This document shows, piece after piece, positions 10,980-37,446 of a DNA stretch of 38,008 nt; position 1 is the stretch's first letter; each line of letters begins with the position of its first letter. The translations under genes were made by a program, and so were the position numbers. The notes under the pieces are model-generated. The model ran no database searches and was not told where the DNA came from. It saw only the letters and a list, made by a program, of their open reading frames with translations. Source of the DNA: a virus. Where the stretch lies: positions 1-38,008 of IMG/VR virus record IMGVR_UViG_3300027580_000007, one strand, 5' to 3'.

Positions 10980-11339
10980 ATGACCTTTGATGAGCTTCTC
11001 AGCCGCCCTCTGGCGCTCATTCCGCAACAGGATGACCCCTCGCCTGCCGCCTTTACAAGCGTCTATGAACAAGGAGATGTATGGGTGAAGATTCGCGGCT
11101 GTGAGGACTGCCCGCCAGAGGTGCTCGCCAAATGCTGCGGCAACTGCCCCCTAGCCTCATCGGCCGGTTGCCTACTCCATCTTCTCAATAAACGAACCAG
11201 CCAGAAGCCCTACAACTGTGTGGTCAAGCCGACGCCTGAAAAGACGCTTTCCTACTGCGTCCAGGAATTTCAATGTGTCCGCGGCACGTATGAGGGACGA
11301 ATCCGCAGAGTGCGGGATAAACGCGGTGAGCTGATATGA
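10980..11339 (+). CDS. Cys-rich small protein, unknown function
   Basis: The 119-residue protein has nine Cys (41, 44, 52, 53, 56, 64, 80, 93, 99), including CEDC and CCGNC. The density suggests a zinc or iron-sulfur centre rather than disulfides, since most late phage proteins assemble in the cytoplasm. No family is recognised. Its stop overlaps the start of the giant repeat protein (ATGA), so the two are translationally coupled. It may assist folding or assembly of that protein or be a minor tail component. Confidence 0.6.
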   Translation: MTFDELLSRPLALIPQQDDPSPAAFTSVYEQGDVWVKIRGCEDCPPEVLAKCCGNCPLASSAGCLLHLLNKRTSQKPYNCVVKPTPEKTLSYCVQEFQCVRGTYEGRIRRVRDKRGELI

Positions 11340-14300: not shown

Positions 14301-16270
14301 AAGGCGATGCCAGCACCCGCACTGAAATATCCTGCGTTCAAAATAACTGGACAGGTCAGTTCATCCGGGCCGCTGCCGGGAATGTTCACACCTTGGGAAT
14401 GAAGCCGGATCGGTCTCTCAAACTTTGCGGCAATGTTTTGAGCGACCCCGATGTGGATCATTGGTTCAACGCCCGTGTTTGGCCCCTCGCTCTTTCGGCG
14501 AGCACCGAAGTCGGCAATATGCACGGCAACGCGCTCCAGCAGCTTTACGAACTTGGTATATCGAGCGTATCCGCCGACTCTCTCATCACTCAGGCCGCTG
14601 TTTCCGCGGCCAAGACCGTCATGTTTTCCGGGGTCACATCCGCCAGCGAGATTGTAAATATCGCAATCGGGGCCCTCAAGGACGTTGGCTTCGATGACAT
14701 GGCCTCGCAGACCGAAGTGGTCAACGTGGTCTTTTCGGTGCTGCGCCAGCTCTATTTCCCGAAAGTGGAGCTCTCTTCGGACGTGCTCGCCGCCGTGGTC
14801 AGGGCCGTCAGGATCGCCAGACAGAGCAATCTCCAATCCGCGGCCCAGGTAACAGACCTCGTGCTGCGAACTGTGAGCTTCCAGGGGCTGCACTCGACAG
14901 ATGTTGAGGCTAAGGCCCAGATCACGGGGCTGGCTATATCCCTCCTGCGGACGCTCCAGGTGGCGGGGCCGATCTCCGACAGCACGATCATAGAGCCCCT
15001 GATGAACGTAAGGCGGCTCCTGGCCGTCGAGGATCCCGGGATCGACAGCTCGGTGCTCGAGGCCTACCTCGGCGTGATCCGCAAGCTCATGGCCTATGAT
15101 GTGGCTGCGCCCTCAAAGGTCTCGGCCCCCCTGGCTTACGCCATCCGTGCTCTCATGGGCTTGGACGCCCAGGTCGATTCGCAGGTCCTGGAAGCCACGC
15201 TGATAGCTGTCCGGGGGCTGCATGAGGCCAAGGTCGAGAGCGCCGCGATGGTGGCCCAGGCCTTCGCCCAGGCCATCCGGAATTTTCATCTTGAAGGGCT
15301 TGTCCTGTCTTCTGAGGTCGTCAACGCAGCGATGGTCGCTGTTCGGCAGTGTCTGGGCCAGGGCCCGTCCACCGTGGCTTCCATATCCGACGCCATCCTC
15401 CAAGCGGTGCGCGAAGTCGCGCCCGACTCTCTCACCGTGGATAGCGAGGTCGCCCACGTCCATTACTCCCTGCTTCGCCATCTCCTTCTCAACGATGCTC
15501 GCTCGCCGGTCGAGGTCACGAACGCGACTTTCGACATTTACGGCAAGGCATTCTCTCGCCCCGAGGACGTGGGAACAGTGGCCCAGGTAACGACCCTGGT
15601 TGTCTCGTTGCTGCGAGCCGCTCTTGTGGCGCAGAGCGTGACCGCCGGGTCAGAGGTCAAGGATGGCCGTCTTGGGCCCATACGGCTGCTCGCCTCGAGC
15701 GATGTGGATGCCGCGTCGGAAGTGACCGCTCTCGCCATTCAGAGTGCCCTCCTGCTCCATATAGACGGCCCCTCGGTTCCTGCCAGAGCGGATAACGTGG
15801 CTCTGTCCCTGATCCGGGCCCTGGAGCTGAATGAGATCGACGCCGGGTCCGAAGTCGTGGACGGTCTGCTCCAGGCCATTCGCCATACACCTCTCCATCC
15901 TTTGCTCGCAGGGTCGAGGGTGGGAAGCCCCTATATGGAGCTTCTGCAGGGGCTTAGAGGCGAGAACCTGACAGTGAATACGCTAATTCAAAATGTATTG
16001 GTCGAAGCAGCTACTTTATTTCGTCTCTATGAAGTGAATTGCGACACCACCATTTCACAAACTATAATTGAAATGAAACGAGGATTGTTTACAGGTATAA
16101 TTCAAATTGATTCACAAATTACAGATATGAAAGTAATACTAGCATCAGTAGGACAAAAAGGTCGCATTAATGTCAGGTTTTATGGAAAATCTTACACAGT
16201 TAAATACTCCGGACAAAAATCAGAAATAGACAAAGAAGGGTTTGTTCCTGAAATATACTTTAATGCATAA
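11336..16270 (+). CDS. Giant tail/fibre protein: 22-residue repeats with two RCC1-like propeller blocks
   Basis: This 1644-residue protein has two blocks rich in RCC1-type repeats, at about residues 360-600 and 765-1035. Typical phrases are DGTVVATGDDTYGQVS, WTDIVDIAAGSGHVI and GHMHVVAVRADG. RCC1 repeats fold as beta-propeller blades. Residues about 1050-1604 are about 25 tandem repeats, nearly all 22 residues long (for example GLHEAKVESAAMVAQAFAQAIR, ALELNEIDAGSEVVDGLLQAIR). They share a 'L-x4-V-x-S-x-S-E-V-x3-h-x2-h-R' pattern. Similar but weaker repeats precede each RCC1 block. The protein therefore looks like a rod made of 22-residue units with two propellers inserted. Residues 1-60 are basic and aromatic. 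Late-module position and size point to a tail fibre or spike that may bind receptors. Nucleotides about 11.5-13.45 kb and 15.97-16.27 kb are AT-rich, unlike the rest. Confidence 0.75.
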   Translation: MKRIVQAVMVLIRKLIELHARFKAWKPIHLCWWFEKHGLPIPPYLIGGSGHFEQGYWAIAPDDPSTIDDPSSCSFDKYPYEETVMIRDIKHLRIDFGETGGANAKGNLQLWTNNTNDFSTATQVTTSSSPVKIVPDANNMLADAIRTTTSVCVNAIQATVIDGYYIDASDESPKIDFGGCQAEMQFCIQWDDTAKHGEYHYFFLALDGTGFDEIHDVIVIQSLKPLTLSLNDVVSNSETTILSGGELLAKYIFSQVVDFSSAVSLAAVIPSNYQIADIACQNIELSVEVSFEALNVSLHHLFPQNTASSSKVQELSGRIGWLVDISLNPVKGRAEVSHDVLYGRGILTRCSKQVAVGGTSSSDMFVLVVLDDGTVVGSGGDPSGARSGAEGWTDIVALAASTDHVVGVKRDGSCVAAGNNSNYACNVGEWKNTIRVYTHRNDYTIGLTRIGEGWSSDGEQNVYDCGTWHMCDNIYSWTDIVDIAAGSGHVIACDVDRNIKYNNRAGNEDTWSNIVQLAAGDSHSVGLQGDGTVVATGDDTYGQVSSVDGLTGVLGVHAAHNHTVIIYNDLTMEAFGDDSNSIVTCINNWTEGFTTLDSEPGVVAALTLERDLNVCGDNATFDISYLLNHWLVPSSVASLTEVENHARFRVPYEFSLFSVVSNAEINSVTITSFENLVTIQPSSISLPSSIQEVYAERFTSLAELVFTGVQSTTSVGSIPMEGTRQLSFKNVVSRPQCTRSFMWGGRSGRGLLMRCTNSKLTQGGQDYDGQENTLIYAVRQDGRVESIQEGIDTSTYSDVYLVPREQWTHAAKISAGHMHVVAVRADGYSMVVGDNTYGQVTDMDTWSGGVAGVACGYEQTLGLIVDGTVNTAGRDDYGQLSCVSTWTDIFDLDVGKCHSLGCKTDGTALACGADSGEDADLGQCDVSGWSNIVQVAAGNFFSAGLGSDGTVVVTGQFAGDPSGWTDIIEICAYNETLLGIDSSFNIHAEGDASTRTEISCVQNNWTGQFIRAAAGNVHTLGMKPDRSLKLCGNVLSDPDVDHWFNARVWPLALSASTEVGNMHGNALQQLYELGISSVSADSLITQAAVSAAKTVMFSGVTSASEIVNIAIGALKDVGFDDMASQTEVVNVVFSVLRQLYFPKVELSSDVLAAVVRAVRIARQSNLQSAAQVTDLVLRTVSFQGLHSTDVEAKAQITGLAISLLRTLQVAGPISDSTIIEPLMNVRRLLAVEDPGIDSSVLEAYLGVIRKLMAYDVAAPSKVSAPLAYAIRALMGLDAQVDSQVLEATLIAVRGLHEAKVESAAMVAQAFAQAIRNFHLEGLVLSSEVVNAAMVAVRQCLGQGPSTVASISDAILQAVREVAPDSLTVDSEVAHVHYSLLRHLLLNDARSPVEVTNATFDIYGKAFSRPEDVGTVAQVTTLVVSLLRAALVAQSVTAGSEVKDGRLGPIRLLASSDVDAASEVTALAIQSALLLHIDGPSVPARADNVALSLIRALELNEIDAGSEVVDGLLQAIRHTPLHPLLAGSRVGSPYMELLQGLRGENLTVNTLIQNVLVEAATLFRLYEVNCDTTISQTIIEMKRGLFTGIIQIDSQITDMKVILASVGQKGRINVRFYGKSYTVKYSGQKSEIDKEGFVPEIYFNA

Positions 16271-21930: not shown

Positions 21931-22458
21931 ATGGCTATAACTGTATCCGCCCTCAATGTCATGAGCGATGGACGTGTTCTCTCGCCCCGTATGCGGATCG
22001 TGAGCGGACATGCTCGAGTCGTTCTCCCGAGCCTTGTGGTCGAGGCCTACGACACCGGCTGGCCGAGTCAGATCCTTGGCGACGGGGAATTCGTTCTCCC
22101 CGCTCTGGAGGTCTACGCCACCGGTGGTCCCAAGCCGCAGCCGGTATCAGGCGTCGGGGACATCATCTTTCCGTCTCTCGCGGTCGAGGGAAAGGGGACG
22201 GTCTCTATTTATGGGGCTGGTGAGTGTCGGTTCCCTGCCTTGGTCGTGACCGGCGCAGGACATTCGGGACGCATGGGAAGCGGCGAGATTGTCCTCCCCA
22301 GGCTCGAGGTCAACGCTTCCGGCGGGATGCGAGTCGTGGGACACGGAGATGTTGTCCTTCCAGCCCTGCAAGTGACAGCCGAGGTCCTGGCACGAGAGGT
22401 CGGCTATCCGCTTCTTACCTATGACGAAGACGGGGAGAACTGGAAATGGCAAAGCTAG
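21931..22458 (+). CDS. Beta-repeat structural protein (fibre-like)
   Basis: The 175-residue protein is built from six repeats of the form G-x-G-x-h-h-h-P-x-L-x-V-x-A-x-G. The repeat prolines fall at residues 33, 57, 81, 102, 123 and 144 (steps of 24, 24, 21, 21, 21). Each repeat would give two or three short strands, as in a beta-solenoid or fibre shaft. The C-terminal 20 residues differ (LLTYDEDGENWKW). The next gene overlaps its last 13 bases. It probably trimerises as part of a fibre or tail needle. Confidence 0.65.
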   Translation: MAITVSALNVMSDGRVLSPRMRIVSGHARVVLPSLVVEAYDTGWPSQILGDGEFVLPALEVYATGGPKPQPVSGVGDIIFPSLAVEGKGTVSIYGAGECRFPALVVTGAGHSGRMGSGEIVLPRLEVNASGGMRVVGHGDVVLPALQVTAEVLAREVGYPLLTYDEDGENWKWQS

Positions 22459-22925
22459 GCTTGCGGATGAATCTGCGGAACCAGGGGCTTTCGCAGTATC
22501 AAGGATATGACTTCGATTCGATGCTCGAGTTCAACGGCAAGCCCCTTGGATTCGGCCCTGGCGGAATATATCAGCTTTTCACCGGGGACAATGACAACGG
22601 CAAGCTCATTCAGGCCATGTTCGACCTGCCCCTTACCAACATGGGGACATCGCGCAACAAGTGGCTGCGCTCGCTTTATCTTTCTCTATCTGCGAACGGC
22701 AAGGTCCGGATCACGGTCACGGACGACGAGCACAATTCCCACAGCTATCTGGCGGTTCCGCAGCGCGTGGACAAGCAGCACACGGTTCGGATCAACGGGG
22801 GCCGCAACTTCAACAAGGGCTGTTTCTACTCTTACCGTGTCGAGAACGTGGAGGGGAGCGATTTCGATATTGATACGATGCAGGTTGTCCCCGTTATGAG
22901 CAACCGCAACACGGGAAAATTCTAG
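22446..22925 (+). CDS. Small beta-rich virion protein (159 residues)
   Basis: The start overlaps the end of the beta-repeat gene, and GGGGAGAAC lies upstream. The product has alternating strands with Gly/Asn/Asp turns (LYLSLSANGKVRITVTDDEHNSHSY, HTVRINGG). No hydrophobic anchor or catalytic motif is seen. The tight overlap with the beta-repeat gene suggests the two act together, perhaps as shaft and cap. Confidence 0.55.
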   Translation: MAKLGLRMNLRNQGLSQYQGYDFDSMLEFNGKPLGFGPGGIYQLFTGDNDNGKLIQAMFDLPLTNMGTSRNKWLRSLYLSLSANGKVRITVTDDEHNSHSYLAVPQRVDKQHTVRINGGRNFNKGCFYSYRVENVEGSDFDIDTMQVVPVMSNRNTGKF

Positions 22926-22934
22926 GAGAGAGCC

Positions 22935-24149
22935 ATGCCGGAAGTCATATCTACAAACGGTTATTTGCACGTCCCTGGGGGGTATTTTGCCGGAGACCTC
23001 GCAGTTCAGGAATATGTCGAAAACAAGATCGACGACTCCCAAGACTTCGCGGAGAAGACACGCGAGATGGCCTTGCAGATGATGCGGAATCTCTCAAGCG
23101 AGAGCTTTCCAGGTTTGAGCAATGTCGATCACAACTTTGAATACAGTGTGAGGCCTCCGGAAATACGCGAATTAACAGTCCCGGATCCGCCGAGCAATCG
23201 GACTTTTCCACCCTTTGACGGGGAAGTTCCCCGGATAGGCGATCTCGAGCCTCCGGATGTGCCGGAGATAATCGTGGATATGAACGTCCCGGGCGATGTT
23301 CTTGCATCGCTCCGCGATGAGTTCTTCGAGGGTCTCAGGGCCCCCTCCGGGTATTCCCCGGAAGTGGAGCAGGGCATCTACGACCGGGCCCGTTCGCGCC
23401 GGAAGGACGATTTGCGGCAGAAAAAAGACGCGGCGTACAATGAATTTGCCAAACGAGGATTCTCAGGGCCTCCCGGGGCATTGCAGGAACTTCTGCTCCG
23501 CTATGACATCGAGGACCACCGTGAGGAAACCGACCTTAACCGAGACATTATCAAGCAGCAAGCCGATCTTGTCCGGCAAAAGTATGAGCTCCTGATGCAG
23601 CTTGGACAGAATCTCAACACATATCTGCTTGAAAAGGCGAGGTTCCAGGCCGGGACGGCCATGGAAAAAGCCAAGGCTCAGTTGCAGTTTGCCCTCGACG
23701 TGTTTTCTTCCAAGCTCCGCAAAGCGGAAACTCAAAGCACCATCCTTCAATCCGAGGTCCAGCTATATGCAGAACAGGCCCGGATGGAATCGCTCAAAAT
23801 CGACATCTACAAGGCTCAGATTGAAGGGGTCCAGAGCGAGGCCGAGCTGGAAAAGATCAAGGCTCAAATATTCTCCGAGGTCTCGCGAGCTGATGTTGAA
23901 ATGAACCGACTAAAGCTCGAGCAAGACCGGCTTAATGTTGAGAGCTCTATCAGCAAGCAGGAGCACCAGAGGGCCATTGCCCAGGCGTCGGCCAATATCG
24001 CCGCACAGCTTGCCGCTTCGGCGATGACCGCGGTGTCTACCTCCGCTCAGATCAGCGGATCCCAGAATGAACAACGATCCCGCAGCGTCCAGGCGGGTGT
24101 AAGTCGCACGGATGGTGTGTACTACAACTATTCAGGATCCGCGGAATAA
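22935..24149 (+). CDS. Coiled-coil virion protein, probably internal or tail (404 residues)
   Basis: AGGAGAG precedes the start. Residues 60-120 are Pro-rich (PPEIRELTVPDPPSNRTFPP), then a helical start (YSPEVEQGIYDRARSRRKDD). Residues 150-380 form a long, nearly unbroken Lys/Glu/Gln/Ala-rich helix without Pro, best read as a coiled coil. Long coiled coils in this position of podovirus maps are often ejected internal proteins or tail rods. No domain family is recognised. Confidence 0.65.
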   Translation: MPEVISTNGYLHVPGGYFAGDLAVQEYVENKIDDSQDFAEKTREMALQMMRNLSSESFPGLSNVDHNFEYSVRPPEIRELTVPDPPSNRTFPPFDGEVPRIGDLEPPDVPEIIVDMNVPGDVLASLRDEFFEGLRAPSGYSPEVEQGIYDRARSRRKDDLRQKKDAAYNEFAKRGFSGPPGALQELLLRYDIEDHREETDLNRDIIKQQADLVRQKYELLMQLGQNLNTYLLEKARFQAGTAMEKAKAQLQFALDVFSSKLRKAETQSTILQSEVQLYAEQARMESLKIDIYKAQIEGVQSEAELEKIKAQIFSEVSRADVEMNRLKLEQDRLNVESSISKQEHQRAIAQASANIAAQLAASAMTAVSTSAQISGSQNEQRSRSVQAGVSRTDGVYYNYSGSAE

Positions 24150-24175
24150 CCTCTTCCTCTGAAGGAGGAAAAGAT

Positions 24176-25291
24176 ATGGCAAAAGATAGGAAAACACCAG
24201 CAGAGCTTAGAAGAGAAAAGATGGAGGCGAGGAAAAAAACTTCTCCTCCGAAGATTCCATGGGAAAACTTTAATCCTCTTAGCAACTTTAACAGTGAAGG
24301 CGCACGAAAAGCGTCTCAATCCATGAAAAAATCAGTGGATAGACAAAACGACACAATGAACGTGGATGTTTCTGCGACAGACACTTATGACGCTACGAAA
24401 AAGAAACTTGCAAATATGCGTAGTAAAAAGGTTAAGCAAACAGAGGATCGTCTCAAAAAGAAGAAGCAAGAGAATAAAAAGAAGGAAAATAGCGGCACAA
24501 GCCCCAAGGACCCCACGCAGGCGCAAGCCCGAAAAGGGGTTCACCTGAGAAGGGGTAAGGATGGAACGCCTCGCATATCGGGCTCCGGCGAAAAGCTCAC
24601 CCCAGAGCAAATAAAGGCGAACAAGGCCTTAGCCAATCAGAAATTTTCCTATGCCGATCTTGCCAAAGGGGCTGCGGAGGGCGTTAAGGCCAAGGCCAAG
24701 CTCGCGGCGGCAGAGCGTGGTGAACGTACAAAAGGGTATTCCAAGTATGAGCGTCTGCAACAGAAGCTACGTCAGTTGGAGATTGATCGAAACTACTGGC
24801 AGTCCCACGACGGGCCGCTCGTTGATGAAGAGGCCCGTCTCAAGAGCCTTCAAAGCGACATCGAGGCCACGCAAAAGAGCTTGCGCGAGCGAGGTGTGCA
24901 GATGCTCGCGAACAAGGGCAGGAAGGAAGCGGCCAAGATCAGCCGTCAGGCTACCCTCGACGCGGCGAAGATAGGTTTCGAGGGCGAGAGGTTCAAAGCG
25001 ATCCTCGATAAGAACAAGGCGTTCGATCCCAAGGAAAAGCAAAAGCAAGTTTCGGATATGATGAAGCAGATGTCCCAGGACACCATGGCACAGTTTCCGG
25101 TGGAGGAGGGAAGCGATCAAATGGCTGCTTACGTCGATCTGCCGGAGAATCGCCAGCTCGAACTCGCAATCCAGCGACTTCGACGGATGTATGAGAGCAC
25201 AGGAGAAGATCCGGAGGCCCTCGGCTTCCCTACCGCGTCGTCCGGCTCCGACAGGCTTGGTCTGGGCAACCTCATGAACAGGAAGGGGTAG
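24176..25291 (+). CDS. Basic coiled-coil internal protein (371 residues)
   Basis: AAGGAGG lies before the ATG at 24176. The N-terminal 120 residues are very rich in Lys (RSKKVKQTEDRLKKKKQENK) and probably disordered or DNA-binding. The central part is helical, with a long basic coiled coil. The first 300 bases are AT-rich and the rest GC-rich. It is 3 bases from the giant gene, in the place where podoviruses keep internal proteins ejected with DNA. That role is inferred from position and charge. Confidence 0.6.
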   Translation: MAKDRKTPAELRREKMEARKKTSPPKIPWENFNPLSNFNSEGARKASQSMKKSVDRQNDTMNVDVSATDTYDATKKKLANMRSKKVKQTEDRLKKKKQENKKKENSGTSPKDPTQAQARKGVHLRRGKDGTPRISGSGEKLTPEQIKANKALANQKFSYADLAKGAAEGVKAKAKLAAAERGERTKGYSKYERLQQKLRQLEIDRNYWQSHDGPLVDEEARLKSLQSDIEATQKSLRERGVQMLANKGRKEAAKISRQATLDAAKIGFEGERFKAILDKNKAFDPKEKQKQVSDMMKQMSQDTMAQFPVEEGSDQMAAYVDLPENRQLELAIQRLRRMYESTGEDPEALGFPTASSGSDRLGLGNLMNRKG

Positions 25292-25294
25292 AAC

Positions 25295-28200
25295 ATGCCG
25301 CAGGAAGGGAGCCCCACCCTCAGTCAGATCCGCAGGGATTACCGCGAATACGACAATATGAACGACAGCGAGCTGGCCGAAGCCCTGTATCTCAAGTACC
25401 AGCCGAATGAGGACTTCGATGTCTTCTCCCGGGGTATTGGCTTCGATGAGGAGGCTCAGACCGCCCGGTTCTCGCCCAAAGAGCTCAATCAGCGCAAGCA
25501 GAACCTTGAGGAGAAAAGCTCATTACATCGGGGCTTCTATGGCGGCGTGGAAAAGACGAAAGCCCTTGGGGCCGGAGCTCTTGCCGCCGTTGGCTCGGCC
25601 ATGGAGGAAACGGTCGGCGTGGGCGAATCCCTGCGGGATTGGGGAATCTCTGAATACAAGGAGAACATGCGCGAGGCGCAGATCAAGTATCCTCAGAAAA
25701 CATCTTTTCAGGAGCTGATCGACGACCCTTCCGTTTCCGGGGCCCTCGATTGGGGGGCCTACACATTGGGCGACCTCGCCCCGACCATTGCGGCCACTTT
25801 CGCGACAGGCGGCGCGGGTGGACTTATGGCCGGGACTGCACGTGCCGCCGGAAAGAGGGCCCTTTCCTACATGAGCCGCAAGGTCGGCACAGAGGCTATC
25901 GAGAAGGGGATCAGGAACGCGGAGCGAAAGCTCATCAACCGCCAGCTCGCCAAGGGCATTGCGGAGGACGTGGCCCAGAAGATGACCACTCGCGGCCTTG
26001 GGGCCCAGGCCGGGATGGTGGCAGGGTCTGGGGCGCTTGAGACCGGCGGCATGTATGGCGAGGCCGTGGAAGAGCTCGGCAGGGAAGAGGCCAATCCGTT
26101 TACGGCGCTCACCTTGGGCGCGGCAGCCGGAGCGGTGGAGCTGGCCGGTGGTAATATTCGGGTGCTGAGAAAGATTTTTGGGGATCAGATCGACGATGGG
26201 GTCAAGTCCGCGATCGAGCTTGCCAAGCGAGACGCCAAGGCCCGTCCCGCCGCGATCCGGTTTCTCTCTCGCGTCGTCGGCGAAGCCGCCCGGCAGGCCC
26301 CAGCGGAAATGGGCCAGGAGGCCGTGCAAGAAGCTCTCGCGATCACCAACATGAACTTTCAGGACCCCGATGCCGAAAGCATCCTCTCGCGGGAGAATGC
26401 GTGGCGGATCATCGAGGCCGGGGCCGCTGGCGGTTTGGCCGGTGGTGTATTTGGCGGGGCTGGGACGGCGACCACGGAAGCCGCCCAGAACGCCGGGGTC
26501 ATGCAAGGGGCTGGCAGGGCCAAGGACCAGATTGACGAACTCTCGCAGCGGATAGGGAGGCAGAAGGCGCTGCGGGAAAGGCTTCCCGAATCCCAACGCG
26601 CCGAGGTTGATAAGCGGATTCAGGAAAACGAGCAGAAGGTCGCCGATTTGCAGAATAAGGTTCTTGCCAAGCAGAAGGGTAAGATCAGCTACGAGGAAGC
26701 GGCCAAGCGGCTAAGTAGCGAGGCCCCCAAGCCGGACGGAAAAAAGACCACGCTCAAGACCGTTCGTAAGCTGGTGAAGAACGACCGTGTTTCCGGGGAT
26801 CAGTTCGGCGTGGACGAGGCCGCGCTCATGAAGCACATCGAGGCCCGGCAGCAGGAACAGGCCAAGGAGCTGCAGAAGCAGGGCCTTGATCAGCTCGATA
26901 CCTCCAAGAGCTATTTCGATCAGGCCGGGGATCTCGTCGGGTTTGCCGATCAGCAGCAGGAACTCAATCAGGATACGATCGACCGCGGCCAGGAGCTGGT
27001 CGGCTCGCTCAAGACCGAGTATGAGAGCTTGCTGGATCAGGGGAAAAAGAAGGAGGCCGAGCAGCTACGCGCCCGGGCCAAGGAGCTTTCTGATCGCGTG
27101 GGGATTCCCGTTCACTTACAGAAGGCCAAAGAAGAGAAGCCCACGCAGCGGGCTCAGACAGAAGAGCAGCCCCTCGACGAGTTCGAGTCCGCCCCAGATC
27201 TGACCGGGCAGAACGTAGCCTTTAGCCTGTCCGATGATCTTGTTCCGGTCTCCGAGGCCGGAGAAAAAATCGCCCAAATTCAGGCTCAGGACCCCTTCCA
27301 GGCCAAAAGCCGGGCCAAGATACAAATCGACACCGCGTGGCAGCACACGGGCGAAAATGTGACCGAAGACGAGTTCGCCGCGGCCATGGGGAGCGTTATC
27401 TCCAACCGGGCCTACTTTACTGATGAGCCGAACAAGGTCACCCAGGCTGGCCTCTCCGCGCTCTCCGAGTGGAAGGCAGAGCGGCAGTCCGCGAAACACA
27501 CCTTTCCCGCTCCCTCCATCACGGACCCCAGGCAGCAAGCCTCCGGACGAGCTCTGGAAGACATGGACGCCGGGACGAGAGCCGCCTACCTCACATCCGG
27601 ATACGATTTCCTGCTCAATTCCGTGGACAAGGAAGGTAACATGCTGGCGGACAAGTTCCTCCCGGAACGGCTAGGCGTGGATGCCGAGACTGTCCGCGAG
27701 ATTGCCGAGCTTGAGAAGCAGCGGCTCCTGGAGGAGCAAGGCGTCTGGGACGACAGCTTTCAGGAAACGCTTCGCACCAGCATGAGCGAGAAGTGGACCC
27801 GGCAGGAGAAGAACAAGCTCGCCACGGACCTTGTGGGGCGGCTGCGCCAAGCAGTCCAGGCCTTTGAAGAGGTCAAGAAAACCTCCGAGAACCCGCGCCA
27901 GGACTACATTGAAATGCACCGGGAATTTGATCGGGTGGCGGTCAAGAGCGGATCCCGGGCGGCTATGGAGCCCTCCGAGGAGCTTGACCGGCTCAGGGCC
28001 GACTACATCAAGACCCGGGCCGAGCTGATCGAGGCTGAGAAGGGACGGGCCAAACAGTCAGCCGAAGCGCCCCAGGTCAAAAAGACCTTGCCTATGGATT
28101 TTGTCTTCGGCCAGGGCGGAACCCCGGATAAGGCTGAACGCGTCCAGGCGGACAACACCTTCGAGGCCATCGTCCGGGGCGAGCGGACGGCCACCTCCCG

Positions 28201-31200
28201 CAAGGACGGCTCTCTCGATAACGTCCAGATCGGGGACATTCTCGCCTTCAAGCACAAAGACACTGGCCGTACGATCCGCGTCCGCGTGACCGGCAAGCGC
28301 AAGGCAGGGTCTGTCTCCGCAGAGCAGTGGGCCCAGGTCGAGGGATACTCCACGGAAGGGGCTCAGGAGAATTGGACCAAGGGCAATAAGTTCTCCGATT
28401 ACACGCAAATCACCTATGAGGCGGTCTCCAAGCCCCACATTGATGTGTCCGCCCGGGAAGAGGCCAAGCTGCAGAACATCCGCAACCGCCTCTTCTCCAT
28501 CCTCTTCGAGTCCCTGGACGACAAGTATTTCCGGCCCGAGGTCCGCCCCCTCAAGAGAGCGGTTGTCGGCCCGAAGGAGACCATGCGGGAACGAAATACC
28601 GAGCAGGGGATTCATCCCAGAACCAAGAACGCACGAGGCGAGGAGCTCTCTAAGGAGCAGAAACAGGCCGAGAAGAAACGGGCAGACTATCAGGCTTTCA
28701 GAGCGGCCCAGGCCCTGGCCTCCCGCATGATCGAGCTGAAACTCGACTTCCGGCGACAGGGCAAAGACCCCGAGGCCCAGGTCCAGAAATTCCAGGGCGG
28801 ACGGGTCGTGATCGAGCAGCACCAGGACGCCGAGGATCGGCAGACGGACCTTAACCGACTGACCCAGGACATCGTGCCTCTGTTCAAGGAGGACGTATTC
28901 GGCGTGGACGACTACCAGCACGTGGTCGGCGTCCCCGAATACATGGGCGCGATCTACCATCAGTTCATCGACCGCAAGGCTTTAGAGCAGAACAAGCTCC
29001 ATCCTCACTACGCTCGGCTCGTCGATTCAGCGGTGGAGAAGATCGAGGACATCTACAAGCGAAGTAATGGCGGCGAGAACAGGGAGGTCCTCAAGGAGTT
29101 CCAGGACGTTCTCTCGCCCTACCTGACGGACGTGGCCTCCAACAACCTCGCCCTGGCAATCTCCTCCAAAGTCCTGCACCATCAGGACCAAAACCTTGCC
29201 TCCGCTTACAAGCACGCCCTCAAGAACCTGTTCTCCAAGTCCTTCGGCCAGGACCCCAAGGCAAAGATCCCCAGGACGCAGTTCAACGCCCAGAAGCACA
29301 TAACCGATGCTTCCGCGCTCAAGCTGGACTTTGGTAAGCATGTGACGCCCCTTGATCCCACGCGCTTTTCTCCCTTGCTGCGGAAGACGAGAACCGAGCA
29401 GTATAAGGCCGGGGAGATCGAGCACATCTTTCAGACCGATCCCGTGTTTCAGGAGCAATACCGGGAGCAGGAGATCCTTGATGCCATGCGCCGGAACAAT
29501 TTCCTCGTTGGTGCCAACGACAAGGCGATCAGCATGGACGACCGCGTCCGGCAGGAGCTGGCTAGGGGGATCGCCAAGTCCCAGGTCAAAAAGGTCTACA
29601 CCGGCAACAAGAGCGCGGCCCGGAAGGAGGTGGACGAGCAGACAGCCCCGGAAGCCCCCGTGGGAACTATCCCCGCGCCGGTCGCACAGCTCATTGTCGA
29701 TCAGATGAGTTCGATTGATGAGCAGCTTGCGAACGAGCATGAGAGTGTCGAGCAGTCCGCCACGGACGCCCTCAACAAGCTCCTGTCTCCGGAAACCCTG
29801 CGAATGGTCAAGTCCCACGCGCCCTATTCCGGGGAGGCCAAGGAACAGCTCGATTTCGTCTATGACCTGCTTGGCAAACTCTTCAAGCAGTACGGAATGC
29901 GGGTTCAGACAAGGCCGGAGACCCTGCGGGAAGGGGCCGACAGCTCCAACCTCAAGGCCAGGGTCACGGATAAGCAGGTCGGGAACAAATACGTCGGCGT
30001 CGCGCATCTCAAGTATGACGGGGACATCGTGTCCTTCGAGAAGGACGGCGAGAAATACGTCGTTACCGATTTCGTGAGGGACGAGAAGAGCGGCGAGGCC
30101 GAGCAGAAGAGGCTGGAGGAGCTGGACGAGAATAATCCCGAGCATTGGGCCGAGTTGGCCGAGCTGGAGAGAATGCGCCCAAGCAGCCGGATCCAGCTCA
30201 AGAATTTAAGAACAGGGGAAACGACGAGCGTGGCTGAGGGGACGCAGCTCGTGAAGCATCCCCGGGTGGACCACTATCTCTATTTTGGCCCGAGCGATCG
30301 GGGTATGGGCGAGCTGCGGAACTTCTTTGAACAGGCAATCAAGAGATACTACCAGAGCCACGCAGAGGCTTCCCGCAAGCAGGCCGTTCCCAAGACACAT
30401 GCCCGGATCGTGACAGACGAGGATGGCAAGAAATTCCTGCGGCTCTTTCCAGACCGCAACAGCCCGGTTTTCGAGGACTACGAGGTCACTCCCGGGGAGA
30501 GCGCACAGCTTGAGAAGGTCAACGAAGTGCGCCGCGCCCTGGAGGAAATGCGCAGCGGCCTGAGGGAGACCCCTCAGATTTCAGACTACGGGATCCGTGA
30601 GCTGCTCGATGCCTACGCCAACCTGGAGGAGGCGACCTACGCACAGGAAATGGCCGACACGGCCACTTTTAGCGGTGGCCCGTCCATGGACGAGCGCGAG
30701 GACGTGGAGCATTTTGAGGACCAGATGAAACGGGCCGCGGATGTGAGCGCCGATGTGTCCGGCGAGGGCCCGGACGCTTCCGGGGACGTGACCGTGGATT
30801 CCATGAGGGCCCCGGCGACCGAGAAACAGGCGGAACGGGAGCGATCCGCCGAGCTGGAGGAAAACCGTCAGGCCAAGATCATCAATTACTTGACCGACGA
30901 CAGCACCTTTGATTTCGGGACCATGGCCGACGAGCTGAAAGAGCTCGCCAAGGACATGCCAGCAGAGCGCAAGACCGGCGTGCTCGCGGTTGCCCGGGAG
31001 TTCGAGAAACACCGGGGCGAGGCCGGGACCAAGGAAGAGGTCAACGCGGCTGAGAGGACGGCCCGGATCAAGCAGATGCTCCTAGAAAGCGAGAGCCTGT
31101 CAAGAGAGGACAAGGAGAAGGTCCAGGCCCGATATGCTGAAAAAGGGGATAAGGCGGGGAACGCCCTTGGCCTGGAAATGCTCATTGAATCGCAGTTCAG

Positions 31201-34200
31201 GGCCAAGGACAGGAAAGAGCTGGACAAGCTGCGAGCTGAGGGCCGGGAGAAGGAACGCCGCGAGGAAGTCCAGCGGCTCCTCACACAGCAGCTTACCAAG
31301 GGGCCGACCACGCCGGAATACACCACCATCGAGCCGGAGAAACTGGAGCAGGCTATTCTCTCCGTGGTGGCGGACGATTCCTTGACCGCAGAGGAGAAGG
31401 AAAACCTGGTCATGTTCCGGGACCCGGAAGAATACGGCGACCTCTCCGGGCTGTCGCAGCTTGAGGAGAAGGGGTTCCGGTTTAGGATTCACCTTCCCAA
31501 AGAGATGCAGGAGTTTCGTCCCGGCGGCGGGGATGTCAGGAAGTATGCCTGGGTCAAGCCAAGCGAGTTGTCCCGCTTCAAGGATAAGGACGGAAACCTT
31601 CCGCAGGTTGCTGGCTTCCAGCACGTGATGACCTTCAAGGATCCGGACAAGGAAGGCGAGACGATCAGAAAGCCCTACATCTTCCAGGTCACGGACAAGC
31701 AGCGGCTGACCCCGCAGGAGGAAGAGCGGTTCACGAAGGGCTACCGGTTCCACGTTCCAAAGTCCGCCATGTATTCCCCGGAAACTGAAGGGGTCAAGCG
31801 AGAGTTCGGCCTCCAGGTCCAGATCGGCGGCGAGTGGTATCACGTGGTCCCCGACGACACCGTGACCCGCGACCTGGACGAGGAGCAGCTGCGACTTGCC
31901 TCCAGGCAGCGATTCGATCAGGAAAAGAAAACCTGGGAGAACGTCGAGCGAGCCGGACGGCATTTTCCTTGGCCTGCCGATTCCTACTGGATGGGATTCA
32001 GCCTGGAGGAAGAGGACGTGGCCCGTGTGGACCTTACTGAGGAGGTCAATCGGGACAATCTCTCCCGCCAGCTCAACAATATCTCCGAGCGCCTCGTCCA
32101 CGGTTCCCGCAATGTCCATCTCCACCTGACCCCCTATGATGAGACCGTGCCCAAGGAGGTCCGGGAGCAGCTCTTCAAGGAGGGCGTCGACCACCGGGTC
32201 AAGGGGCTCTACAACTACCAGACTAACGCGGTGCACATCTTCCTCAACCGCCACGCCGACAAAGAGGGCAAGCTCGACAAGCGGTCGTTGACCAAGACAC
32301 TGCTCCACGAGGCGGCGCTGCACGGGGGGCTGACCAATATCTTTGAGGGGGATCAGGAGTTCGAGGCCTTCATGCACGACGTGCACCGGGCCTATAAAAA
32401 CGAGCTCCCCGATCCGGAGACCATGACCAGGGCCAAGTTCCTGCGGACCATCGAGGAGTTCCTGGCCCGAAAGGTCGAGCAGACCGAGGTGGACGCCAAG
32501 GGCAGGTTTGTAAATCCCGAGATCAACACCTGGTATGACAAGCTCGCGGCCTTCGTGGTGAAGGCGGCTCGCAAGATCGCGACGCAGCTTGGCATGACCA
32601 TCCACCTGACCAAACCCGAGATCAGGGAGACCATTGGCAAGACCTTCCGTGGGCTCGACGTGAAGCGCACCCACGGGCTCGCCCACATGATCCCGGGGGA
32701 TATGAAGCCGGCCCGGAATGTTCCCCGCTATAAGGAGTTTCAGACCTACGAGGAGAACCGCGGGGACTGGTTTCTCCGCAAGATCGAGGACGCGCAGCGG
32801 CAGTGGCTCCTACTGAAAAAGTCTATGTTCAATCAGGGGATCAAACTCCGCGACGACGAGGATGTGGAGACCCATTTGCGCCTCTACCCTGGCCGGGTTG
32901 AGCCCAACGAGAAGCTTGTCCGGGACCGGATGCAAAACGCCTACGACAAGATCGCCAAACATAGGCTTTCGATAGAGGAAGTGACCAAATACCTCTTTGC
33001 CAAACACGCTCTGGAGCGAAACGCTCGAATCAGGAACAATCCCAAGATCCAGAAGAGAGTTCGGAGCCAAGCAGAGATCGACCTTCAAAACGCCGGGAGC
33101 GGGATCCACGACGAGACGGCCAAGCAGTGGCTTTCGGAGCTGGAGAAAGCAGGCAAGACGAACGCGGTCCACGAGGTCGCGCAAGAGGTTTGGAAGACCA
33201 ATGAGGAGTTCCTGGACAACCTTGTCTTATACGGCTTTAAGACCCAGAAGGAGGTCGATCGCATCCGCAAAACCTTCGACTACTTCGTTCCCATGGGCCA
33301 TGAGGACTTTTTCGAGAAGGCGGTCGAATCCTCCGGTATGGCCGGATCGAGCAACTTGGTGAAGGGCTTGAAGCCCAACCTCGAGCCGGGGCTCAATCCC
33401 CTTGCCATGACCTTCAACCGGGCCCAGAACGCCGTGGCAAACGGGGAGAAGAATCTGGTCAAGCAGTCCCTGTATCACATGATCTATAACCACCCGCAGA
33501 GCAACCTCTTCGAGCTCTACCTCCCGGAAGAGGAGGTCCGCCAGCTCCAGGCGGACATGAACCTGTCGGATGCGGACATGACCGACTGGCTCATGGAGCG
33601 CGGCTTCCATTCTGAGGCGGACATTGCCGAATCCCTGCAACAAGATTTGCGAGAGAACCGGATTATTCCTGTCACCATTGACGGCAAGCGGTCCTACATC
33701 CGGATCAAGCACGAGGGCTTACGCCGGGCCTTTTTGCAGGAGGGAATCGTTAGAGGGAAAGGGCTGGTCCGGGCCCTTGGCGGGCTCTCCCGCTGGCTGG
33801 TCATGGCAAATACCATGTTCAATCCGGAGTTCTGGTATACGAACTTACTGCGCGACGTGGGGACCGCCGTGGGCAACACCATCACCATGCAGCGGCTCGG
33901 GAAGAATCAGGACACAAAGCAGCTTGCCAAGCAGGTCTTAAAAGGCGTGCCCCACGCCATGCGCGGGATCGCCAACTACAATTTCGGCAAAGGCGACCAC
34001 GAGTTTGCCGCAATATTCAAGGACTACGTGGAGCACGGCGGCAAGATCGGTGCGCCTTTTCATGGGAACAAGGACATGACGGAGCTGGTGCAGGAGATGC
34101 AGCGGGAGATCGACCGGCGGGGCAGCGGCGGGATCGCGGCGGTCATGCTCCGGCACAAGGACAAGCTCATGGATCTGACCACGCGGATCAATGACGTGTT

Positions 34201-35488
34201 CGAGAACGCCTCCCGCGTGTCCGCATACAAGACCGCCATAGATAACGGCGTCTCCAAGGTTCAGGCCGCGAAGATGGCCCGGGAGCTGACCGTTGATTTC
34301 AATAGGAAAGGTGAGCTCGGACAGTTGATGAATACGTTCTACCTCTTTTCCACAGCAGGTGTCGGGGGAACGGCGAGGATTTTGCGGGGGCTCGTGAAGA
34401 ACCCCCAGAGAGCGGGGAAGCTGATTGGGGGGATCGCTCTGGGTGGGGCCTCCCTGGCGCTGATGAACCGGCTGGCCGGAGGCACGGACGAGGACGGACG
34501 CTGGCATTTCGAGAGGATCAATAGGGACACGCGAAGCAGGCACATGATCTTCATGGTTCCCGGTGGCAACGGGGACTACATGAAGATCCCGCTTCCATAC
34601 GGCTTCGGGTTCTTCTTCGACCTGGGCCAGCTTATGGTGGACTACGCGCTTAGCGAGCGCGGCCACGGGACGTTCGATACCGCCGGGCAGATCCTTGGCT
34701 CGGCCACGCACAATTTTAATCCGATCAGCGCGGCCGGAAAGCTGAATACGGCCCACGGCTGGCTGCAGCTCGTCTCTCCGACCCTGGCCGACCCGATGGT
34801 GGACATCAGCATGGAGAAGACCCCGTTCGGGAGCCCCTTGATGCCCACGCCGGAATACAAGGGCCAGCCGGACGCGAGCCGCCATTGGGATTCTGTCGGC
34901 GTGGTGTCCAGGGAGGCTTCGCAGTTGTTGAACGAGCTGACCGGCGGGGCTCCTGAGGTCCCGGGGGCCGTGGACATTTCCCCTGAGACCATGGACTACA
35001 TGCTGGAGACCTTCGGCGGCAGCGCGGGACGCTTCTGGATGCAGCGGCTTCCCGGCTATATCACGGGTAAACTCCAGGGCAAGCAGATGGATTATAACGA
35101 CGTGCCAGCCCTTCGCCGCGTGATGGGCGAGCCTTACGATTGGCAGAACCGTCAGCTCTTCAACGAGGCGGTCTATGAAGTCCAGTCAGCCGGGGATCGC
35201 CTGGATAACATGCGGAAACGTGCGCAGTATGCTAAAACGGAGTCAGCAAGGCAAAGTGCAATGGAGACCATCAGGAACTACCAAAAGGACAACCGGAAAC
35301 TCCTTGCACTTGATGGCCTCAGAAAAGATATGTTCGCTAGGATAAAAGATATCGACACTCGGAAAGAGAGGATACGAAAGTCCGGATACTCCCAGTCCCA
35401 AAAGGATAAAGCGTTGAATGATCTTGACGAAAGACAGTATAAGTTTATGAAGCAATTCAATAATCGATTTCTCCAATCTACCGATTGA
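25295..35488 (+). CDS. Giant polyvalent internal virion protein with ASCH-like, zincin-like and LPD38-like regions
   Basis: This 3397-residue protein is the largest in the window. The N-terminus (residues about 8-50, with YDNMNDSELAEALYLKY) is of a type often found on phage ejection proteins. Gly/Ala-rich hydrophobic stretches follow at about 90-105, 158-180, 270-287 and 375-404, then charged coiled coil. Residues about 934-1048 resemble an ASCH domain (FEAIVRGERTATSRKDG ... IGDILAFKHKDTGRTIRV). At 2338-2343 HEAALH follows VHIFLNRH, as in the zincin-like peptidase regions of polyvalent proteins, though spaced HExxxH, not HExxH. Residues about 2835-3260 resemble LPD38, which caps many such proteins. 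The last 100 residues are a basic coiled coil. Such proteins are thought to travel with the DNA and act early in the new host. It may be processed into parts; no cleavage site is obvious. Confidence 0.75.
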   Translation: MPQEGSPTLSQIRRDYREYDNMNDSELAEALYLKYQPNEDFDVFSRGIGFDEEAQTARFSPKELNQRKQNLEEKSSLHRGFYGGVEKTKALGAGALAAVGSAMEETVGVGESLRDWGISEYKENMREAQIKYPQKTSFQELIDDPSVSGALDWGAYTLGDLAPTIAATFATGGAGGLMAGTARAAGKRALSYMSRKVGTEAIEKGIRNAERKLINRQLAKGIAEDVAQKMTTRGLGAQAGMVAGSGALETGGMYGEAVEELGREEANPFTALTLGAAAGAVELAGGNIRVLRKIFGDQIDDGVKSAIELAKRDAKARPAAIRFLSRVVGEAARQAPAEMGQEAVQEALAITNMNFQDPDAESILSRENAWRIIEAGAAGGLAGGVFGGAGTATTEAAQNAGVMQGAGRAKDQIDELSQRIGRQKALRERLPESQRAEVDKRIQENEQKVADLQNKVLAKQKGKISYEEAAKRLSSEAPKPDGKKTTLKTVRKLVKNDRVSGDQFGVDEAALMKHIEARQQEQAKELQKQGLDQLDTSKSYFDQAGDLVGFADQQQELNQDTIDRGQELVGSLKTEYESLLDQGKKKEAEQLRARAKELSDRVGIPVHLQKAKEEKPTQRAQTEEQPLDEFESAPDLTGQNVAFSLSDDLVPVSEAGEKIAQIQAQDPFQAKSRAKIQIDTAWQHTGENVTEDEFAAAMGSVISNRAYFTDEPNKVTQAGLSALSEWKAERQSAKHTFPAPSITDPRQQASGRALEDMDAGTRAAYLTSGYDFLLNSVDKEGNMLADKFLPERLGVDAETVREIAELEKQRLLEEQGVWDDSFQETLRTSMSEKWTRQEKNKLATDLVGRLRQAVQAFEEVKKTSENPRQDYIEMHREFDRVAVKSGSRAAMEPSEELDRLRADYIKTRAELIEAEKGRAKQSAEAPQVKKTLPMDFVFGQGGTPDKAERVQADNTFEAIVRGERTATSRKDGSLDNVQIGDILAFKHKDTGRTIRVRVTGKRKAGSVSAEQWAQVEGYSTEGAQENWTKGNKFSDYTQITYEAVSKPHIDVSAREEAKLQNIRNRLFSILFESLDDKYFRPEVRPLKRAVVGPKETMRERNTEQGIHPRTKNARGEELSKEQKQAEKKRADYQAFRAAQALASRMIELKLDFRRQGKDPEAQVQKFQGGRVVIEQHQDAEDRQTDLNRLTQDIVPLFKEDVFGVDDYQHVVGVPEYMGAIYHQFIDRKALEQNKLHPHYARLVDSAVEKIEDIYKRSNGGENREVLKEFQDVLSPYLTDVASNNLALAISSKVLHHQDQNLASAYKHALKNLFSKSFGQDPKAKIPRTQFNAQKHITDASALKLDFGKHVTPLDPTRFSPLLRKTRTEQYKAGEIEHIFQTDPVFQEQYREQEILDAMRRNNFLVGANDKAISMDDRVRQELARGIAKSQVKKVYTGNKSAARKEVDEQTAPEAPVGTIPAPVAQLIVDQMSSIDEQLANEHESVEQSATDALNKLLSPETLRMVKSHAPYSGEAKEQLDFVYDLLGKLFKQYGMRVQTRPETLREGADSSNLKARVTDKQVGNKYVGVAHLKYDGDIVSFEKDGEKYVVTDFVRDEKSGEAEQKRLEELDENNPEHWAELAELERMRPSSRIQLKNLRTGETTSVAEGTQLVKHPRVDHYLYFGPSDRGMGELRNFFEQAIKRYYQSHAEASRKQAVPKTHARIVTDEDGKKFLRLFPDRNSPVFEDYEVTPGESAQLEKVNEVRRALEEMRSGLRETPQISDYGIRELLDAYANLEEATYAQEMADTATFSGGPSMDEREDVEHFEDQMKRAADVSADVSGEGPDASGDVTVDSMRAPATEKQAERERSAELEENRQAKIINYLTDDSTFDFGTMADELKELAKDMPAERKTGVLAVAREFEKHRGEAGTKEEVNAAERTARIKQMLLESESLSREDKEKVQARYAEKGDKAGNALGLEMLIESQFRAKDRKELDKLRAEGREKERREEVQRLLTQQLTKGPTTPEYTTIEPEKLEQAILSVVADDSLTAEEKENLVMFRDPEEYGDLSGLSQLEEKGFRFRIHLPKEMQEFRPGGGDVRKYAWVKPSELSRFKDKDGNLPQVAGFQHVMTFKDPDKEGETIRKPYIFQVTDKQRLTPQEEERFTKGYRFHVPKSAMYSPETEGVKREFGLQVQIGGEWYHVVPDDTVTRDLDEEQLRLASRQRFDQEKKTWENVERAGRHFPWPADSYWMGFSLEEEDVARVDLTEEVNRDNLSRQLNNISERLVHGSRNVHLHLTPYDETVPKEVREQLFKEGVDHRVKGLYNYQTNAVHIFLNRHADKEGKLDKRSLTKTLLHEAALHGGLTNIFEGDQEFEAFMHDVHRAYKNELPDPETMTRAKFLRTIEEFLARKVEQTEVDAKGRFVNPEINTWYDKLAAFVVKAARKIATQLGMTIHLTKPEIRETIGKTFRGLDVKRTHGLAHMIPGDMKPARNVPRYKEFQTYEENRGDWFLRKIEDAQRQWLLLKKSMFNQGIKLRDDEDVETHLRLYPGRVEPNEKLVRDRMQNAYDKIAKHRLSIEEVTKYLFAKHALERNARIRNNPKIQKRVRSQAEIDLQNAGSGIHDETAKQWLSELEKAGKTNAVHEVAQEVWKTNEEFLDNLVLYGFKTQKEVDRIRKTFDYFVPMGHEDFFEKAVESSGMAGSSNLVKGLKPNLEPGLNPLAMTFNRAQNAVANGEKNLVKQSLYHMIYNHPQSNLFELYLPEEEVRQLQADMNLSDADMTDWLMERGFHSEADIAESLQQDLRENRIIPVTIDGKRSYIRIKHEGLRRAFLQEGIVRGKGLVRALGGLSRWLVMANTMFNPEFWYTNLLRDVGTAVGNTITMQRLGKNQDTKQLAKQVLKGVPHAMRGIANYNFGKGDHEFAAIFKDYVEHGGKIGAPFHGNKDMTELVQEMQREIDRRGSGGIAAVMLRHKDKLMDLTTRINDVFENASRVSAYKTAIDNGVSKVQAAKMARELTVDFNRKGELGQLMNTFYLFSTAGVGGTARILRGLVKNPQRAGKLIGGIALGGASLALMNRLAGGTDEDGRWHFERINRDTRSRHMIFMVPGGNGDYMKIPLPYGFGFFFDLGQLMVDYALSERGHGTFDTAGQILGSATHNFNPISAAGKLNTAHGWLQLVSPTLADPMVDISMEKTPFGSPLMPTPEYKGQPDASRHWDSVGVVSREASQLLNELTGGAPEVPGAVDISPETMDYMLETFGGSAGRFWMQRLPGYITGKLQGKQMDYNDVPALRRVMGEPYDWQNRQLFNEAVYEVQSAGDRLDNMRKRAQYAKTESARQSAMETIRNYQKDNRKLLALDGLRKDMFARIKDIDTRKERIRKSGYSQSQKDKALNDLDERQYKFMKQFNNRFLQSTD

Positions 35489-37369: not shown

Positions 37370-37446
37370 TGGTGCGCCAGGGAGGATTTGAACCCCCGGC
37401 CTTCGGATTCGTAGTCCGACGCTCTGTCCGACTGAGCTACTGGCGC
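37370..37446 (-). tRNA. tRNA-Arg (anticodon ACG)
   Basis: The 77-base minus-strand gene folds as a tRNA. The acceptor pair is GCGCCAG / CTGGCGC with discriminator A and an encoded CCA. The T arm contains GGTTCAAAT. The anticodon loop is CTACGAA, giving anticodon ACG (Arg, CGN codons). Its 3' end points to the phage genes, and the promoter lies to the right. It is likely a host gene used as the integration target. Confidence 0.95.

What the first reader, a model, noticed from the sequence alone, without database searches (positions are those of the whole stretch)
25295..35488. 3397-residue polyvalent virion protein joining ASCH-like, zincin-like and LPD38-like regions
One gene takes up over a quarter of the window. 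The ASCH-like region suggests binding or modification of RNA or nucleotides, the HEAALH site suggests a protease, and the C-terminal region resembles LPD38 of polyvalent proteins. Between residues about 1050 and 2300 lie more than 1200 residues with no recognised domain. Together they look like a package of early-acting effectors injected with the DNA, which may include anti-defence functions.
Basis: partly seen in the sequence, partly recalled or inferred. Interest (0 to 1): 0.7.

Follow-up and report, generated by a model that had tools for sequence, protein, structure and literature searches.

The report
Giant injected phage protein with ASCH
A virus of bacteria encodes one 3,397-residue protein that it most likely packs in its particle and injects with its DNA; the two ends of the protein belong to a widespread phage delivery family, and the middle carries a small RNA/nucleoside-handling (ASCH) domain that also turns up inside two unrelated kinds of giant phage protein that are likely injected too.

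Summary
The C-terminus is an LPD38 polyvalent-protein module (Pfam E=1.2e-32), with at least 548 IMG/VR matches. HEAALH is an HExxxH zincin site in a predicted zincin topology. Residues 926-1049 are an ASCH domain: a confident AlphaFold2 model matches E. coli YqfB (Z=11.0). New here: residues about 84-480 also match the N-termini of relatives, so the protein is two conserved end modules around a swappable middle. In relatives the middle holds RadC, ART, InPase, helicase, RNase-like or Acb1-like (anti-CBASS) domains. The ASCH belongs to a distinct phage subfamily (GERTAT[ST]R...W..LEG). All 24 viral copies found lie in giant ORFs; with the window they span LPD38, T7 gp16-like and crAss-RNA-polymerase-like backbones. 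The YqfB catalytic Thr, Arg and Glu are kept; Lys is Arg in all copies. A Bcep22-type relative is proven in virions by published mass spectrometry. This is a new variant of a known kind. Injection, cleavage and any anti-defence role of this protein are inferred. Residues 1050-2290 remain unassigned.

The parts
25295..35488 (+). Giant gene, 3397 aa, stop included
25544..26734 (+). N-terminal family module, residues about 84-480, Ala/Gly-rich
   Evidence: Profiles of relatives' N-termini built without the window: best E=4.2e-9 (Z=100), 20 of 65 profiles below 1e-3, no control below 0.036; composition
28070..28441 (+). ASCH domain, residues 926-1049
   Evidence: AF2 pLDDT 88.6; Foldseek YqfB E=4.5e-5; VIA Z=11.0, rmsd 2.6 over 96 residues; Pfam below cut-off
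28184..28201 (+). RTATSR, residues 964-969, part of the GERTAT[ST]R signature: R964, T967 and R969 match YqfB K21, T24 and R26
   Evidence: YqfB residues from PMC9599836
28340..28342 (+). E1016, matches YqfB catalytic E74
28442..32161 (+). Middle region, residues 1050-2289, no recognised domain
32120..32584 (+). Zincin-like domain, residues about 2276-2430
   Evidence: Predicted strand-helix-strand-strand-helix-helix order; alignment of relatives
32306..32323 (+). HEAALH (HExxxH) site, residues 2338-2343
32456..32458 (+). E2388, invariant Glu in the following helix, candidate third zinc ligand
   Evidence: invariant column E99; helix
32732..35485 (+). C-terminal family core, residues 2480-3397, mostly helical
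34508..35071 (+). LPD38 domain, residues 3072-3259
   Evidence: Pfam PF18857 E=1.2e-32
22446..25291 (+). Three genes (159, 404, 371 aa) directly upstream, in the place where relatives have a mid-sized gene (median 421 aa); possible ejection partners by position only
   Evidence: virion structural protein match for the first; no homology detected to relatives' upstream genes

Best explanation
It is a phage-type polyvalent protein of a 933W/Bcep22-like short-tailed phage: one long chain packed in the head and ejected with the DNA. The conserved N-terminal module and the conserved zincin plus LPD38 C-terminal module act as the delivery vehicle (packaging, passage through tail and envelope, release). 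The middle is exchangeable cargo. Here the cargo includes an ASCH domain that most likely binds or processes RNA or modified nucleosides in the newly infected cell, plus about 1,240 residues of unknown cargo. The zincin may cut the chain to free the cargo. Shown here: the modular homology, the ASCH fold (by prediction), the conserved residues, the genomic setting, and that the same ASCH subfamily sits in other giant phage proteins. Inferred: packaging and ejection of this protein, zinc binding, cleavage, and the ASCH substrate.
For: LPD38 and core homology. N-terminal module shared. Variable cargo in 21 relatives. ASCH fold with invariant pocket residues. Conserved HExxxH plus Glu and predicted zincin topology. 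Gene order terminase-portal-capsid-connector-giant-lysis. A Bcep22-type relative, JC1 gp69, gave 51 unique peptides from CsCl-purified virions (PMC9144972). Same ASCH subfamily in a T7 gp16-like protein and in crAss RNA-polymerase-type giants.
Against: No virion data for this phage. The record is a fragment without a known host. The core has no solved relative. The ASCH lacks YqfB's lysine. About 38 of 72 relatives show no HExxH/HExxxH within 330 aa of the core (some have inserts there), so the protease may be dispensable.
Confidence: 0.75

Rival explanations
1. A purely structural ejection protein: the giant forms part of the DNA-ejection conduit, as T7 gp16 or P22 ejection proteins do, and the ASCH and middle regions are spacers or assembly domains, not effectors.
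For: Position after the tail genes and before lysis; Ala/Gly-rich N-terminus; the ASCH also sits in a gp16-like protein.
Against: The middle is the part that varies between relatives and often holds enzymes; the ASCH keeps its pocket residues across unrelated backbones.
Confidence: 0.15
2. The ASCH is a modified-cytidine amidohydrolase like YqfB, recycling or deacetylating ac4C.
For: Closest solved fold is YqfB; Thr, Arg and Glu of its active site are kept.
Against: The catalytic Lys21 is Arg in all 23 copies; Lys is the proposed base in YqfB (PMC9599836).
Confidence: 0.15
3. The ASCH is an RNA-binding accessory of early phage transcription, and its place here is a relic of, or a partner to, an RNA polymerase module.
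For: Most copies lie in giants with a DxDxD motif that looks like the crAss virion RNA polymerase.
Against: No RNA polymerase motif or match in the window protein; the closest ASCH relative is in a gp16-like protein without a recognised polymerase.
Confidence: 0.2
4. The zincin acts on host proteins as an effector, not on the giant itself.
For: Discussed as a possibility for polyvalent zincins in PMC5512222.
Against: Its fixed place next to the conserved core rather than in the variable cargo suggests a vehicle role.
Confidence: 0.25

Closest known systems
LPD38 phage-type polyvalent proteins: Stx phage 933W-type giant (phrog_616), Bcep22/BcepMigl gp69 'DarB-like', Vibrio phage 1.205.O NVP1205O_20
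   Same: Zincin plus LPD38 C-terminal core, N-terminal module, place in the late gene cluster
   Different: 23-27% identity in the C-terminal module; different middle. None of the 21 other middles scanned matched ASCH at E<=0.001, a cut-off the window's own ASCH also misses
N4 virion RNA polymerase gp50
   Same: Similar size and plan: N-terminal domain, cargo, then a zincin domain and a large helical C-terminal domain (PMC12633501)
   Different: No detectable sequence similarity in the C-terminal part; no polymerase found in the window protein
E. coli YqfB (ac4C amidohydrolase, ASCH)
   Same: Fold, and Thr24, Arg26, Glu74
   Different: Lys21 is Arg; embedded in a giant phage protein
L090 T7 gp16-like protein (1866 aa) and crAss RNA-polymerase-type giants (cr272_1, L092)
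   Same: Carry the same ASCH subfamily (48% identity for L090)
   Different: Only chance-level similarity outside the ASCH in the comparisons made (L090 and L092)
Phage P1 DarB/DdrB
   Same: Large virion proteins thought to be injected (PMC9024508)
   Different: No helicase, methylase or ParB domain found in the window protein

Membership tests
Phage-type polyvalent protein (PMC5512222) | Two or more domains of unlike activity in one chain | tested here: met
   ASCH, zincin-like and LPD38 in one ORF; the activities themselves are not tested
Phage-type polyvalent protein (PMC5512222) | A domain typical of the phage type, such as LPD38 | tested here: met
   PF18857 E=1.2e-32
Phage-type polyvalent protein (PMC5512222) | Zincin with HExxH or HExxxH and a Glu in the next helix | tested here: met
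   Motif, invariant Glu and predicted topology; zinc and activity untested
Phage-type polyvalent protein (PMC5512222) | Transferred into the host with the DNA | not testable with these tools
   Only a relative is known to be in virions (PMC9144972)
ASCH superfamily | ASCH/PUA-like fold | tested here: met
   Predicted model; Foldseek E=4.5e-5, VIA Z=11.0 to YqfB, other ASCH proteins next
ASCH superfamily | Match to the curated ASCH profile | tested here: inconclusive
   14.8 bits against a cut-off of 21.2 for the window; 3 of 4 subfamily members match at E<1, best 0.0017
YqfB-type ac4C amidohydrolase | Catalytic Lys21, Thr24, Glu74 (with Arg26) | tested here: not met
   Thr, Glu and Arg kept, Lys replaced by Arg in all copies
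N4-type virion RNA polymerase | T7-like polymerase domain | tested here: inconclusive
   No Pfam or PHROG match, but residues 480-925 and 1050-2290 were not folded
N4-type virion RNA polymerase | Homologous helical C-terminal domain | tested here: inconclusive
   No sequence match; not seen among fold matches
DarB-type protein (helicase plus methylase) | Helicase and adenine methylase domains | tested here: not met
   No such match in the window protein, while helicase and methyltransferase matches were found in relatives with the same library

The most novel reading that the evidence does not exclude
A dedicated ASCH subfamily (GERTAT[ST]R...W..LEG) is a mobile cargo domain of injected giant proteins, traded between unrelated ejection backbones (LPD38, gp16-like and crAss RNA-polymerase-type), with a new RNA- or nucleotide-directed activity needed in the first minutes of infection, possibly against a host defence.
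Probability: 0.35. Interest if true: 0.75.

Novelty: new variant of a known kind. Interest (0 to 1): 0.55.

Why it matters
Recurrence of one small domain in unrelated ejected proteins would point to a function that phages repeatedly need at DNA entry. It gives a compact, testable domain with a fixed signature, and a clear vehicle-and-cargo layout that could guide the discovery of other injected effectors: the variable middle of LPD38 giants is where to look.

Tried and rejected
No close relative of the whole protein in IMG/VR. Pairwise phmmer of the stretches upstream of the core against 86 giants found one hit, to the zincin piece only (best domain E=0.0015). No sequence link of the C-terminal core to N4 vRNAP and no PDB sequence match. 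No PDB fold match for zincin plus core: Foldseek best E=0.28, VIA best Z=8.3 confined to the terminal helices; this does not show that the fold is new. The neighbouring genes (159, 404 and 371 aa) showed no homology to relatives' upstream genes. Two genome scans for the ASCH subfamily gave only two loci. No attachment-like repeat of the tRNA-Arg gene in the window. Weak Pfam hits to Ntox30 and Ntox37 over the ASCH (E about 0.1) were judged chance. Base composition does not mark the ASCH as a recent gain (GC3 0.79, like its neighbours).

Full report
Setting. The window is a 38,008-base IMG/VR record. Genes on the + strand run terminase large subunit (2134), portal (5616), major head protein (8817), head closure protein Hc3 (18121), three smaller genes (22446-25291), the giant (25295-35488) and an Rz-like spanin (36609), by PHROG matches. 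This is a short-tailed phage layout. Published work notes that the Bcep22-like phage JC1 shares portal, capsid and head closure proteins with 933W (PMC9144972), and the giant's C-terminus matches the same groups.

Observation. The ORF and its 3397 residues are confirmed. LPD38 is certain. The other two domain claims needed more than profile searches.

C-terminal vehicle. Residues 2290-3397 align with giants of Vibrio, Stx, Burkholderia and uncultured phages and of two plasmid records at 23-27% identity, with invariant residues throughout. AlphaFold2 on 54 sequences gave pLDDT 81. The model matches LPD38-type polyvalent proteins in the viral library (best E=4e-50, TM 0.69) and nothing convincing in the PDB.

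Zincin. The site is HEAALH, an HExxxH form. All six annotated relatives have HExxH or HExxxH before the core, and a downstream Glu is invariant. The predicted order of strands and helices fits the zincin description in PMC5512222, which also reports HExxxH forms. Of 72 relatives, 34 have such a motif within 330 residues of the core, against 1.9% in shuffles; some of the rest, such as Stx phages, have an insert there. Activity is untested.

N-terminal vehicle. Pairwise searches miss it. Profiles built from relatives' N-termini with the window left out match residues about 84-480, best E=4.2e-9 at Z=100; 20 of 65 profiles pass 1e-3, and in those listed no control (100 shuffles, the reversed sequence, later stretches of the same protein) scores better than 0.036. 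Many of the 65 profiles overlap in membership, so they are not independent tests. The region is Ala/Gly-rich with mild hydrophobic stretches. N4 vRNAP also has a likely membrane-spanning N-terminus (PMC12633501).

Cargo. Between the two ends, relatives carry different domains: RadC, InPase, ART, LPD1, LPD5, helicases, ddrB-ParB, PBECR5, and one Acb1-like anti-CBASS match (22 proteins including the window). The window has none of these. Its one recognisable cargo is ASCH.

ASCH. Pfam alone is weak. With four homologues the model reaches pLDDT 88.6. Foldseek ranks E. coli YqfB first (E=4.5e-5), and VIA-align gives Z=11.0, rmsd 2.6 over 96 residues, followed by other ASCH proteins. In the YqfB alignment, catalytic Lys21, Thr24, Arg26 and Glu74 (PMC9599836) fall on R964, T967, R969 and E1016. 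Across 23 copies the first three positions are invariant and Glu is kept in 22; Lys is always Arg. So the pocket looks kept, but YqfB chemistry cannot be assumed.

Distribution of the ASCH subfamily. The first match was in a crAssphage giant. Alignment-based scans gave 24 viral loci and two genome loci. All 24 viral copies lie in ORFs of at least 1,085 residues, two of them only if TAG is read as sense, and many ORFs run off the fetched stretch. Nineteen share one backbone by blastp, and 17 of these have a DxDxD-type motif that I read, from general knowledge, as the crAss virion RNA polymerase; crAss RNA-polymerase giants are virion cargo (PMC10172136). L090 (the same contig as L096) carries the closest ASCH (48% identity), shares nothing else detectable with the window protein, and its C-terminus matches the PHROG 'internal virion protein with endolysin domain', which I take to be the T7 gp16 type (E=4e-42). 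The window is the third backbone. Caveats: the loci are not independent, giants make up a fair share of such genomes, the scans use short patterns, and no formal background rate was computed.

Literature. PMC5512222 defines polyvalent proteins, lists LPD38 as phage-only and does not mention ASCH in its main text. I found no paper describing ASCH as a domain of injected giants, within an open-access library only. JC1 gp69, the DarB-like giant of a Bcep22-like phage, gave 51 unique peptides from CsCl-purified virions; its relative BcepMigl gp69 is in our alignment.

Verdict. An LPD38 polyvalent virion protein with a new cargo domain. Packaging, injection, cleavage and function are inferred.

Noticed in passing
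window 11336-16270 (+): A 1644-aa gene between capsid and connector genes with RCC1-like repeat matches (phrog_16766, E=3.5e-10); possibly a tail fibre or spike.
   Followed up: no
window 37370-37446 (-): A tRNA-Arg (ACG) gene on the opposite strand close to the end of the record; no repeat of it elsewhere in the window.
   Followed up: partly
one of the 22 proteins of alignment A2: The middle of one LPD38 giant has a Pfam Acb1 (anti-CBASS) match, E=5.5e-9, together with 2'-5' RNA ligase-type matches: a candidate pre-loaded anti-CBASS domain.
   Followed up: no
L092 1-8460: A crAss-like RNA-polymerase-type giant carries ASCH, AlkB-like 2OG-Fe(II) oxygenase (E=1.3e-18) and NADAR (E=1.9e-11) domains near its C-terminus.
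   Followed up: partly
L102 3329-10915; L108 6428-11446; L095 2-9253: Three further giants with the same ASCH subfamily and no similarity to the other backbones; L102 (from a 244.7-kb contig) also has a DprA-like match.
   Followed up: partly
window 32999-33094 (residues about 2569-2600); positions 280-314 of the first sequence in alignment A1: A highly conserved motif in the core of relatives, HAPERNAHIAxINPKMxDGGSGMT, diverged in the window (HALERNARI...NAGSGI), looks catalytic or ligand-binding and has no assigned function.
   Followed up: no
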